The notes beneath the pieces are model-generated. The model worked only from the letters and a program-made list of their open reading frames with translations. It did no database searches and had not been told where the DNA came from. Source: Apibacter raozihei (GTDB taxonomy: Bacteria > Bacteroidota > Bacteroidia > Flavobacteriales > Weeksellaceae). From it: 64,000 bases of DNA. The position numbers were made by a program, and so were the translations under genes. Shown in pieces: positions 40,202 to 43,614 of this stretch. The stretch lies in NCBI RefSeq assembly GCF_004014855.1, contig NZ_CP034930.1, positions 372,001-436,000 of the forward strand. The letters run 5' to 3'. Numbering within the stretch: position 1 is the stretch's first letter; the number at the start of each line of letters is the position of its first letter.

Positions 40202-40750
40202 ATGATGAAACATAGAAATTTTACACACTATCTTATAGTACTAATAATCATAACTATATTAAAATTAATATATAAATATTCGGAAATGGATGATCTTCAC
40301 TTTCTTCTGGAACCAACAAGCAAAATCGTCGGTTTCCTCAACAATTCATCTTCAATTTTTATCAAGGACGCCGGATATTACCACGAAAGTTTAAATATAA
40401 TAATCAATAAATCCTGTTCCGGATTTAACTTTTTAATCTTATGTTTTGCTATCCATATATTCTCAATAATTCCTTTACTATATACTGCTCAACAGCGAGT
40501 GTATGCATTTTTCATATTGTTTGTAGGTAGTTATTTTTTAACGATAGTTATTAATTCTTGCCGAATAGTACTTATTATTTTACTAAATAAACTCTTGGTT
40601 GCTTACGGATTTTCCATCAACTGGATGCATCAGGCTGCCGGAACTTTTGTATATCTATTTTTCCTCATAGTTATTTACTTAACTTTTAATCACTTAATCG
40701 CTCGATTCGCTTTTATTAAATCAATGAAAAACGATGAAAAATTTGCTTAA
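40202..40750 (+). CDS. xrtK: Exosortase K (XrtK), dedicated membrane transpeptidase/protease
   Basis: A 182-residue integral membrane protein with five or six hydrophobic segments and the exosortase catalytic triad in order: Cys72 (NKSCSGFNF), Arg121 (NSCRIVLI) and His143 (NWMHQAAGTF). Exosortases cleave and transfer proteins at a C-terminal PEP-CTERM-like sorting signal on the periplasmic face. Its start codon is followed at once by a second Met codon. The downstream gene begins 17 bp before this stop and encodes an MSEP-CTERM protein, the known sole partner of the XrtK subtype. The XrtK label rests on this pairing and on the short length. Confidence 0.88.
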   Translation: MMKHRNFTHYLIVLIIITILKLIYKYSEMDDLHFLLEPTSKIVGFLNNSSSIFIKDAGYYHESLNIIINKSCSGFNFLILCFAIHIFSIIPLLYTAQQRVYAFFILFVGSYFLTIVINSCRIVLIILLNKLLVAYGFSINWMHQAAGTFVYLFFLIVIYLTFNHLIARFAFIKSMKNDEKFA

Positions 40751-43580
40751 TCCTAAGTGGCTTTTGTTTATAAACAGCCTACCTGTAATTATATTGTTTA
40801 TTCTTCTGAAAAATAACTATGATACAATTCTAAGCCTTCTTGATGAGTCATCAATAAAAACGGCTCATTATATAGGCACATTCTTATTACTCATAGGAAT
40901 AGTAAATCTGATTTATGCACTATTCAGCATTTTCAAAAAAAAGAAAGTTTCTTTATATTGTGGTATTTTCTCACTTATAATCAATATTTTGTTTCTATAT
41001 ATTTTCACACAATACTTCAGGGATATTTTCCTGTTTTCAATTCCCCAATGGATGATTTCTGAATATATACAACTTTATCCCTGGACTTTTCTAATGCCTT
41101 CTCTTTTTTATTCTTTATTAGTAATTGTGCTACGACTTACACCTGAAAATAAAACTTACAGTGTTTGGCAAAGTTTTTTATATGCTGTACTGATTCCTGT
41201 TTTCTGGTTTTTAATTATTCAAGTAATTATTCCTCTACGACTAAATTTGCCTTACAATTTCAGCGAACATCTTACCATAGTCTTTATCATTGTTACTATA
41301 CTTTTATTCTTTTTTTTACTGATACGGGGAATTTATATTCTTACCTTAAGAAAAAATGAACTATGGAAAAAATATGAATTACTATGGAAAATTCCTGTCG
41401 CTTTAATTTTACCTCTTCTAGGGTTGTATATTAATAATTCTGAATTTAAACATTGGAATTGGACCTTATTTAATCAAAAAGGAGGTATTTTTGGAGATTT
41501 CAATAGTCTATGGTTTTATATTCTGGCAATCATTAATGGATCTTTGATTTGTATTCCTGATGCAAAAAAAACCAACACCCGATTGCTTCTTTTTCTAGGA
41601 AAAAGTATAACCTTTGCTTATACCTTGTACTTTTTTCTAGTATTTATTCCTTTTCTCCCTTTATCCATATTTGCTATAGTCATTTTGGGTCTCGGTTTTT
41701 TACTACTCACTCCTCTTATTTTATTTATTCTCTATATTCATGAACTATCTAAAGATTTCCTATTTCTACAACAATATTATTCAAAAAATATTCTTCGAAT
41801 AACTTCTTTCTTAGCATTCTTACTCATACCCACATTCATTACTATTGTTTACCTAAACGACCGTAAAAATCTAAATGAAGCACTAGATTATGTATATCAT
41901 CCGGATTATTCACAAGAATACTCTATTGATACTCAATCTTTATCTAAATCACTTCAAACAATCAAGTATTATAAACAAAAAAACAACAATACATTACTAA
42001 GTACTAGCAATATACCCTATTTATCTTCTTATTTTAATTGGTTGGTATTAGATAATCTTACACTTAGTGATACTAAAATCGATTATTTAGAACAAATATT
42101 TTTCGGATATAATAAAGATGAAAACAGGGGTATTGCACAAAACACTTTTATCCCTACTCTATCTAAAGACTCTGTAAAAATTTCAAATATTGAAGTCAAG
42201 AGCCATTTTGATATTCAACAAAAAGCATGGAAAAGCTCAGTTGACTTTAAAATTACCAATTATACAAATTCTAGAACGGCAGAATACCAAACCTTTTTTG
42301 AACTTCCAGCTGGTTGTTGGATAAGTAATTATTATCTATATGTAAACGATCGAAAAGAATCAGGGATTTTAGCTGAAAAAAAATCTGCTTTATGGGTTTA
42401 TTCGCAAATTGTTAATTATAGACAAGATCCGGGGATTTTGTATTATCTTACAGGAAATAAAATTGCTTTTCGGGTTTTTCCATTTTTAGAAAATGAAACA
42501 CGAAAAACAGGGATAGAGTTTATACATAAGGACCCCATACAATTGTCTATTGACGGACATGCTATTCAGTTAGGGAAAGTTCAGTATAACAACCAACTTA
42601 TTGAAAGTGCTAATAAAAATATTCTATACATTCCTGCCGAAAGAAAACAGTTTCTTTCTAAGGTGCAAAGAAAACCTTATTATCATTTTATTATTGATAT
42701 TTCCTCGGACAGCAAACAGGCTAAAAACAACTATATACAAAGAATTGAATCTTTGCTTTCCAGAAATTATTTAGACGTATCTAAGACTCGAATATCTTTA
42801 GTAAACAGCTATATTTCTCCAGTATATTCTGCTAATGATAATTGGCCAAATGTCCTAAAAAATGAACATAATAAAGGGGGATTTTTTTTAGACAGGGCTA
42901 TTAAGAGTCTTCTTGTTAATACTTACCTGAAAACAGAAGAAATATATCCTATCATAGTGATAGTTACAGACAGTTTAGAAAATGCTATTATTGAAAATAA
43001 TTTCGCAGATCTATCTTTTACTTTTCCTGAAAGTTCTATTTTTTATCATTTAGATAAAAATGGAGTTTTAAATTCCCATTCATTAATTTCAAATCCTAAA
43101 ATTATCTTAGAAAGAAATATTTATCCTGATTTTACCGCTGAAGTACTTGCTTACCCAAACGTTGAAAAACCGATTGGTTATTTGACAGATGATGATTCTG
43201 CCTGCTATTTATTAAAGAAAGAAATGATTTCACTTAATGAAGCTGAACTTAAAGCAAAAGACTGGAACTCTTCTCTGGAGATCCAAGGAGTGTGGATGTC
43301 ACAGATAATAAACCCTAAAGCATTTAAAGAAAACTCGACTCAACTTGTAAAATACAGCTTTCTCGCTAAAATTATGAACCCCGCCACCTCTTTTATAGTT
43401 GTAGAAAACGAGGCTCAAAAAGCAGTATTGAAAAATAAACAAAATCAGGTATTAAAATCAAACCAAGCTCTTGACTTTGATGATGAAACCGAACGTATGA
43501 GCGAACCAGGAATCATTTTACTTTTTATTTTTCTATTAATTTTTATATTGATCAAAAAAAAGAAAGTCAGACTCAATTGA
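40734..43580 (+). CDS. MSEP-CTERM sorting-signal protein with VIT domain (XrtK substrate)
   Basis: A 948-residue protein. Residues 1-380 hold roughly ten membrane helices. Residues about 470-620 form a vault/inter-alpha-trypsin (VIT)-like domain (ASPKDSV-type strands; YNYRQDPGILYY-like loop; IAFRVFPFLENETRK). Next is a vWA-like region (YHFIIDISSDSKQAKNNY) whose usual DxSxS metal site is altered. The C-terminus is the sorting signal: MSEP at residues 922-925, a hydrophobic helix IILLFIFLLIFILI and the basic tail KKKKVR. The gene overlaps xrtK by 17 bp and ends inside a 42-bp palindromic terminator. Family recognition is firm; its physiological role is unknown. Confidence 0.88.
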   Translation: MKNLLNPKWLLFINSLPVIILFILLKNNYDTILSLLDESSIKTAHYIGTFLLLIGIVNLIYALFSIFKKKKVSLYCGIFSLIINILFLYIFTQYFRDIFLFSIPQWMISEYIQLYPWTFLMPSLFYSLLVIVLRLTPENKTYSVWQSFLYAVLIPVFWFLIIQVIIPLRLNLPYNFSEHLTIVFIIVTILLFFFLLIRGIYILTLRKNELWKKYELLWKIPVALILPLLGLYINNSEFKHWNWTLFNQKGGIFGDFNSLWFYILAIINGSLICIPDAKKTNTRLLLFLGKSITFAYTLYFFLVFIPFLPLSIFAIVILGLGFLLLTPLILFILYIHELSKDFLFLQQYYSKNILRITSFLAFLLIPTFITIVYLNDRKNLNEALDYVYHPDYSQEYSIDTQSLSKSLQTIKYYKQKNNNTLLSTSNIPYLSSYFNWLVLDNLTLSDTKIDYLEQIFFGYNKDENRGIAQNTFIPTLSKDSVKISNIEVKSHFDIQQKAWKSSVDFKITNYTNSRTAEYQTFFELPAGCWISNYYLYVNDRKESGILAEKKSALWVYSQIVNYRQDPGILYYLTGNKIAFRVFPFLENETRKTGIEFIHKDPIQLSIDGHAIQLGKVQYNNQLIESANKNILYIPAERKQFLSKVQRKPYYHFIIDISSDSKQAKNNYIQRIESLLSRNYLDVSKTRISLVNSYISPVYSANDNWPNVLKNEHNKGGFFLDRAIKSLLVNTYLKTEEIYPIIVIVTDSLENAIIENNFADLSFTFPESSIFYHLDKNGVLNSHSLISNPKIILERNIYPDFTAEVLAYPNVEKPIGYLTDDDSACYLLKKEMISLNEAELKAKDWNSSLEIQGVWMSQIINPKAFKENSTQLVKYSFLAKIMNPATSFIVVENEAQKAVLKNKQNQVLKSNQALDFDDETERMSEPGIILLFIFLLIFILIKKKKVRLN

Positions 43581-43597
43581 GTCTGACTTTCTTTTTT
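43556..43597. terminator. 42-bp perfect palindromic bidirectional terminator
   Basis: Two 21-nt arms (core AAGTCAGACTCAA/TTGAGTCTGACTT) meet without a loop and are flanked by A and T runs on opposite sides. The stop codon of the MSEP-CTERM gene (43578-43580) lies in the right arm. It serves the convergent thiolase gene as well. Confidence 0.9.
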
Positions 43598-43614
43598 ATT
43601 GCATAAATGTTTAT

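What the first reader, a model, noticed from the sequence alone, without database searches (positions are those of the whole stretch)
40202..43580. XrtK exosortase with its single MSEP-CTERM substrate
Seen: Cys72-Arg121-His143 exosortase triad in a 182-residue membrane protein, overlapping by 17 bp a 948-residue gene whose C-terminus is MSEP + hydrophobic helix + KKKK. The substrate has about ten extra N-terminal membrane helices and a VIT domain. Known: XrtK/MSEP-CTERM pairs are described computationally, with role unknown. Inference: the product may be cleaved between membrane domain and tail to release or anchor a VIT-domain structure; the altered vWA metal site suggests a structural role.
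Basis: partly seen in the sequence, partly recalled or inferred. Interest (0 to 1): 0.7.

Follow-up and report, generated by a model that had tools for sequence, protein, structure and literature searches.

The report
Dedicated exosortase and its single substrate
This bacterium carries a membrane enzyme that appears to exist only to process the C-terminal tag of one large membrane protein encoded next to it; in a group of related bacteria that lost the enzyme, the same protein now wears the tag of a different enzyme, which is strong evidence that the tag is a real and interchangeable address label.

Summary
Confirmed. Window 40202-40750 is exosortase K (TIGR04287, 126.7 bits, cut-off 55). Window 40734-43580 is its MSEP-CTERM partner (TIGR04286, 889.9 bits, cut-off 150). 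Cys72/Arg121/His143 are invariant in 55/55 XrtK. The 17-bp overlap recurs in 25/48 loci. The tag is M-x-E-P, then a helix and a basic end. Exactly one such tail occurs per genome in 19/19 genomes.

New here: among 73 relatives, 12 Hymenobacter genomes lack XrtK, and their orthologous substrate has exchanged the MxEP tail for a PID-CTERM tail. The only exosortase in those genomes is of the XrtX (PID) type. All seven XrtK-bearing Hymenobacter keep MxEP, three despite also having XrtX. The PID group is one clade, so this is one switch event.

The substrate is modelled as 11 N-terminal membrane helices plus an ectodomain folded like inter-alpha-inhibitor heavy chain 1 (VIT+vWA), with a family-wide degenerate metal site. 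Because the ectodomain stays tethered N-terminally, tail removal cannot release it. Processing or transfer of the C-terminus to an envelope acceptor is more likely, but unproven. In 14 loci the pair neighbours an HTH_34 regulator cassette, often with CreD or DUF4153. The window pair itself is an ordinary member of a catalogued family.

The parts
40202..40750 (+). xrtK: exosortase K, 182 aa membrane protein; Cys72, Arg121, His143
   Evidence: TIGR04287 126.7 bits, cut-off 55; triad 55/55 in the family
40734..43580 (+). MSEP-CTERM gene, 948 aa; start overlaps the end of xrtK by 17 bp
   Evidence: TIGR04286 889.9 bits, cut-off 150; same overlap in 25 of 48 loci
40734..41921 (+). N-terminal membrane domain, residues 1-396, 11 helices, N-in by the positive-inside rule (12 K+R in inner loops, 2 in outer); no clear PDB match
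   Evidence: AlphaFold pLDDT 88.1, pTM 0.83; Foldseek best E 1.5; loop charges
42174..42572 (+). VIT domain region, residues about 481-613
   Evidence: Pfam PF08487 33.8 bits at 488-595; beta strands 481-613 in the model
42663..43166 (+). von Willebrand A-like domain, residues about 644-811, with partly lost metal-ion site (D655 and S657 kept; third Ser lost; Phe/Tyr at the GG[FY] loop)
   Evidence: VIA-align Z about 9-10 to vWA domains, residues 644-811; column counts
43497..43508 (+). MSEP motif, residues 922-925, in a flexible linker (pLDDT <50 at 918-926); likely exosortase recognition/cleavage region
   Evidence: M, E and P invariant in 47 aligned tails; low-confidence linker in the model
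43509..43577 (+). C-terminal hydrophobic helix and basic end (KKKKVRLN), residues 926-948
   Evidence: sequence; helix 927-947 in the model

Best explanation
A one-enzyme, one-substrate protein-sorting pair. The substrate inserts in the inner membrane with its N-terminus inside, 11 helices, and an inter-alpha-inhibitor-heavy-chain-like ectodomain (VIT plus vWA-like) outside. Its C-terminus re-enters the membrane through a tripartite tag: M-x-E-P, helix, basic end. XrtK, translated just before it from overlapping genes, recognises that tag and, through Cys72/Arg121/His143, cuts near the motif, probably passing the new C-terminus to an acceptor in the envelope (lipid or glycan head group). Shown here: the pairing, the one-to-one stoichiometry of genes, the conserved triad and tag, and that tag type follows the exosortase available in the genome. 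Inferred from the exosortase/archaeosortase family: cleavage and its side. Speculative: the acceptor. Because the ectodomain stays tethered by its N-terminal helices, the purpose is not release; a second, covalent tether of the ectodomain, or maturation, is the likelier purpose. The loci that carry an HTH_34/CreD/DUF4153 cassette suggest a role in the cell envelope. The confidence given is for recognition and processing of the tag by XrtK; for transfer to an acceptor it is about 0.5.
For: Both curated models. XrtK sits next to the substrate in 54 of 73 loci from a species-wide scan. The other 19 are 12 PID-tail Hymenobacter, 3 Cytophagales with xrtK on another contig, and 4 contig-edge cases. 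Triad 55/55 and recurrent 17-bp overlap. Exactly one tail per genome, 19/19. XrtK and substrate distances co-vary across 49 genomes, Mantel r 0.88, 0 of 999 permutations as high. Tail switch: 12/12 PID-tail genomes lack XrtK and have a single exosortase, which is XrtX at 249-257 bits in the two tested formally and XrtX-like by sequence in the rest. 7/7 MxEP Hymenobacter have XrtK, three with an XrtX-type enzyme as well. Eleven of the 12 PID tails pass the PID_CTERM cut-off. In L111 the aconitase-like gene that lies upstream of xrtK in XrtK-bearing relatives ends about 310 bp before the substrate gene, with no xrtK between. Motif in a flexible linker. Ectodomain like inter-alpha-inhibitor heavy chain 1, Foldseek E 8e-9.
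Against: No processing data exist for this pair. The tail switch is one evolutionary event (one clade, SH-aLRT 89), so the 12 genomes are not independent. L102 and L117 lack a detectable XrtK, but both are draft MAG loci at contig ends. The acceptor and the benefit of trimming an already anchored protein are unknown. The CreD/HTH_34 cassette is not next to the pair in the window's genome.
Confidence: 0.8

Rival explanations
1. XrtK only trims the tail (protease maturation) and nothing is attached; the ectodomain, freed at its C-terminus but held at its N-terminus, changes conformation or partner.
For: The substrate keeps 11 N-terminal helices, so no new anchor is needed.
Against: Archaeosortase A work couples cleavage with lipid attachment (PMC7157517); exosortases are thought to act as transpeptidases (PMC11980579).
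Confidence: 0.3
2. No processing at all: the tail is just a twelfth membrane helix and XrtK is a structural partner or assembly factor of the substrate.
For: The genes are tightly linked and co-evolve, which partnership alone would also explain.
Against: Catalytic Cys/Arg/His invariant in 55/55. Where XrtK is missing, the orthologous substrate carries the sorting tag of another exosortase rather than a decayed tail.
Confidence: 0.1
3. The PID tails in Hymenobacter are neutral drift after XrtK loss, not re-targeting to XrtX.
For: Single clade, one event.
Against: 11 of 12 pass the curated PID_CTERM cut-off. P[ILV]D plus the helix pattern is kept in 13 diverged proteins. The same genomes hold 3-8 PID_CTERM matches in all, and in 8 of 15 XrtX genomes one lies within about 1 kb of xrtX (positions).
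Confidence: 0.12

Closest known systems
TIGR04287 exosortase K / TIGR04286 MSEP-CTERM (NCBIfam)
   Same: Both genes match far above the cut-offs over nearly full length; adjacency, triad, tag
   Different: Nothing essential. The tag in the wider family is M-x-E-P (S, T, A, D or P at the second place), and a Hymenobacter subclade scored as TIGR04286 carries a PID tag instead
XrtN system: TIGR04476 exosortase N / TIGR04477 VIT-domain protein
   Same: Membrane helices then VIT domain then C-terminal sorting tag, with the exosortase gene adjacent; profile homology over 345 columns (prob 99.5, E 1.9e-22)
   Different: Tag is GAVPEPHEWALI; the exosortase model is longer (TIGR04476, 406 positions) and the gene lies downstream; the window protein scores only 43 bits to TIGR04477 (cut-off 250)
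XrtX / PID_CTERM (NF046081 / NF046080)
   Same: Appears to take over the orthologous substrate in XrtK-less Hymenobacter
   Different: One enzyme for several proteins per genome; no PID_CTERM match in the window's genome
Inter-alpha-inhibitor heavy chain 1 (6fpy/6fpz)
   Same: Best fold match of the ectodomain, VIT plus vWA (Foldseek E 8e-9; VIA-align Z 9.7 over 293 residues but rmsd 9.5). Heavy chains are covalently attached to polysaccharide (PMC7170535)
   Different: Animal secreted protein, intact Mg site (Asp298, Ser300, Ser302, Asp403), no membrane domain, different attachment machinery; the analogy in attachment is a lead only
TIGR02921 PEP-CTERM protein (PEP_integral)
   Same: Annotated as a PEP-CTERM protein family; weak match in the VIT region of one distant relative (14 bits)
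   Different: Window protein does not match this model

Membership tests
Exosortase K (TIGR04287) | Full-length match above curated cut-off | tested here: met
   126.7 bits vs 55, profile 2-160 of 163
Exosortase K (TIGR04287) | Cys, Arg, His of the exosortase/archaeosortase active site | tested here: met
   C72, R121, H143; 55/55 in aligned XrtK
Exosortase K (TIGR04287) | Encoded with an MSEP-CTERM protein | tested here: met
   17-bp overlap; adjacent in 54/73 loci
Exosortase K (TIGR04287) | Cleaves its substrate | not testable with these tools
   needs a bench assay
MSEP-CTERM protein (TIGR04286) | Full-length match above curated cut-off | tested here: met
   889.9 bits vs 150, profile 1-918 of 920
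MSEP-CTERM protein (TIGR04286) | Tripartite tail: MSEP, helix, basic end | tested here: met
   residues 922-948; M, E, P invariant in 47 tails
MSEP-CTERM protein (TIGR04286) | Only one such tail in the genome | tested here: met
   19/19 genomes, own genome included
XrtN-system VIT protein (TIGR04477) | Match above curated cut-off | tested here: not met
   43.3 bits vs 250
PID_CTERM (NF046080) | PID tail above cut-off | tested here: not met
   no hit in the window's genome; met by 11 of 12 Hymenobacter orthologues
VIT / inter-alpha-inhibitor heavy-chain fold | VIT domain plus vWA fold | tested here: met
   Pfam VIT 33.8 bits; Foldseek E 8e-9; vWA Z about 9-10
Metal-binding vWA (MIDAS) | DxSxS plus loop Thr and Asp | tested here: not met
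   D655 65/65, S657 61/65, third Ser 5/65, Phe/Tyr at 717 62/65, Asp746 42/65

The most novel reading that the evidence does not exclude
Exosortase substrates can be handed from a dedicated enzyme to a shared one by rewriting only the last 30 or so residues. In one Hymenobacter clade the MSEP-CTERM protein lost XrtK, replaced M-x-E-P by P-[ILV]-D and became a client of XrtX, which also serves several unrelated proteins. With the XrtN system this makes at least three exosortases acting on related membrane-anchored VIT scaffolds, so the scaffold needs C-terminal processing but not any particular enzyme.
Probability: 0.75. Interest if true: 0.65.

Novelty: new member of a known kind. Interest (0 to 1): 0.5.

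Why it matters
Enzyme-tag pairs in the exosortase family rest mainly on co-occurrence. Here the same protein is found with two different tags, each matching the exosortase present in that genome, which is close to a natural swap experiment. It makes a clean test possible in Hymenobacter that hold both enzymes: change the tail, see which enzyme acts. One enzyme, one substrate, one tag per genome also makes XrtK a simple system in which to find what exosortases attach to their substrates.

Tried and rejected
Horizontal transfer on plasmids or phages: no tblastn match in 72,556 plasmids, and no relative confirmed in viral contigs. A known fold for the N-terminal membrane domain: Foldseek best E 1.5, VIA-align Z below 9 on helix bundles, uninformative. 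A second MSEP-tailed protein in the window's genome: none. The genome's second exosortase as an alternative enzyme: it is XrtF with its own partner. The other VIT protein of the genome (L002) matches the marine sortase-target model weakly (95.8 bits vs 551.65) and was not shown to have a sorting tail. The key paper on archaeosortases and exosortases (PMC3256604) is not held. A Bacteroidota-type promoter pattern upstream of xrtK could not be scanned with the pattern tried; the sigma-70 scan was no better than shuffles.

Full report
CHECK OF THE OBSERVATION. The 182-aa protein is exosortase K by TIGR04287 (126.7 bits, cut-off 55) and the 948-aa protein is MSEP-CTERM by TIGR04286 (889.9 bits, cut-off 150). 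Pfam sees a VIT domain at 488-595. In 55 aligned XrtK proteins Cys72, Arg121 and His143 never vary, and the 17-bp overlap with the substrate gene is the commonest arrangement (25 of 48; next commonest 4 bp, 5 of 48).

DISTRIBUTION. The pair is sporadic. In 296 genomes of the order, 5 hold the substrate above cut-off, all with an adjacent XrtK or XrtK-like exosortase: four XrtK above cut-off and one at 40 bits. In 395 genomes of the phylum, 5 hold the substrate and 4 XrtK; the fifth (G474, L165) carries a PID tail and no XrtK. A scan of 84,980 species found 73 relatives, mostly Bacteroidota plus single MAGs of other phyla. In 54, XrtK lies next to the substrate. The rest are 12 Hymenobacter without XrtK, 3 Cytophagales with XrtK on another contig, and 4 loci cut by a contig end. 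One of the 54, in Verrucomicrobiia (L116), has an XrtK-like exosortase below the cut-off (30.9 bits).

ONE SUBSTRATE. A profile of 47 tails found exactly one MxEP tail in each of 19 genomes, with a wide gap to the next hit (4e-10 against 0.014). The tag is M-x-E-P (Ser usual; Thr, Ala, Asp, Pro also seen).

THE TAIL SWITCH. Twelve Hymenobacter substrates have no XrtK nearby. They end not in MxEP but in P[ILV]D plus a helix, yet the three tested still score 750-790 bits to TIGR04286 and two of those pass the PID_CTERM cut-off. A census of exosortases gives one per genome in all 12, and no XrtK. Two of the 12 were tested formally and are XrtX; the others share the CNGLVLYALF-type core by sequence. 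All seven Hymenobacter with MxEP have XrtK; three of them also have an XrtX-type exosortase and still keep MxEP. Genome-wide, 11 of the 12 PID-tailed substrates pass the PID_CTERM cut-off. In 8 of 15 genomes with an XrtX-type enzyme, a PID_CTERM gene lies within about 1 kb of it (positions). On a tree of 68 substrates built without the tail, the PID group is one clade (SH-aLRT 89) inside Hymenobacter. That makes one derived switch, not twelve. The aconitase-like gene upstream and a membrane-protein gene downstream are shared by several members of both groups. In L111 the upstream gene ends about 310 bp before the substrate start with no xrtK between, where XrtK-bearing relatives have it.

ANATOMY OF THE SUBSTRATE. 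The AlphaFold model has mean pLDDT 87.7 and pTM 0.86. Eleven N-terminal helices follow the positive-inside rule with the ectodomain outside (12 K+R inside, 2 outside). Alone, this domain folds at pLDDT 88.1 but has no clear PDB match. The ectodomain matches inter-alpha-inhibitor heavy chain 1 (Foldseek E 8e-9), with vWA folds at Z about 9-10 over residues 644-811. The metal site is degenerate in the family: Asp655 65/65, Ser657 61/65, third Ser 5/65, Phe or Tyr at 717 in 62/65, Asp746 42/65. The MSEP motif lies in a linker of pLDDT below 50 (918-926), as a cleavage site might.

RELATED SYSTEM. The XrtN-system VIT protein is homologous over membrane helices, linker and VIT domain (345 columns, E 1.9e-22) but has a VPEP-type tail and its own exosortase downstream. 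So related scaffolds are paired with XrtK, XrtN and, after the switch, XrtX.

NEIGHBOURHOOD. In 14 loci the pair lies on the same strand as a conserved membrane protein and an HTH_34 regulator within about 4 kb; several of these also have CreD or DUF4153. The membrane protein is single-copy in 16 of 17 genomes that have it, and in 10 of the 19 genomes searched a copy is the one beside xrtK. In the window's genome that cassette, with CreD, is elsewhere (C1:2358264). This hints at an envelope role; it is association only.

MECHANISM. Shown: pairing, triad, tag, single substrate, tag following the exosortase present. From family knowledge: archaeosortase A cleaves its PGF-CTERM substrates and couples this with lipid attachment (PMC7157517), and exosortases are thought to be transpeptidases (PMC11980579). 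Inferred: XrtK cuts at or near MxEP. Since the ectodomain remains fixed by its N-terminal helices, the cut does not release it; joining the new C-terminus to a lipid or glycan, or a maturation step, are the open choices. Heavy chains of inter-alpha-inhibitor are covalently attached to polysaccharide (PMC7170535); the fold match makes this a suggestive parallel, not evidence.

NOVELTY. The window pair is a plain member of catalogued families. No paper in the held library names MSEP-CTERM, exosortase K, or exosortase together with Hymenobacter; subscription papers and model descriptions were not available. I found no report of the tail switch, within that limit.

LIMITS. One switch event; MAG-derived loci from other phyla may be misbinned; SH-aLRT 89 from a quick tree; XrtX in G474 was not checked.

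Noticed in passing
window 43550-43604: Strong hairpin followed by T-run (RNA MFE -27.3 kcal/mol, z -7.9) overlaps the last codons (KKKKVRLN, stop) of the MSEP gene and lies between it and a convergent thiolase gene: a likely bidirectional terminator inside the coding end, so the basic end is partly encoded by the terminator arm.
   Followed up: partly
L003:1029-2001 (genome C1 about 1320770): The genome's only other exosortase is XrtF (TIGR04128, 180.9 bits) with its associated membrane protein TIGR04127. In Flavobacterium johnsoniae xrtF was identified as a surface-colonisation gene (PMC10936215).
   Followed up: partly
L206:3678-6183 (genome C1 about 2358264): Conserved membrane protein, HTH_34 regulator and CreD in a row; the same membrane protein/HTH_34 cassette that neighbours xrtK-MSEP in 14 other loci. 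The membrane protein has no Pfam match.
   Followed up: partly
L206:6382-8508: VgrG-like protein (Phage_GPD and phage base V domains) directly after that cassette, suggesting a type VI secretion island.
   Followed up: no
L116 and L117: The Verrucomicrobiia and Lentisphaerae relatives end in METPEP and VPEP, like ordinary PEP-CTERM; possibly a further tag change, but L117 lies at a contig end and L116's exosortase is below the XrtK cut-off.
   Followed up: partly
window 40734-41921: The 11-helix membrane domain is confidently modelled (pLDDT 88) yet has no clear PDB relative (Foldseek best E 1.5).
   Followed up: yes
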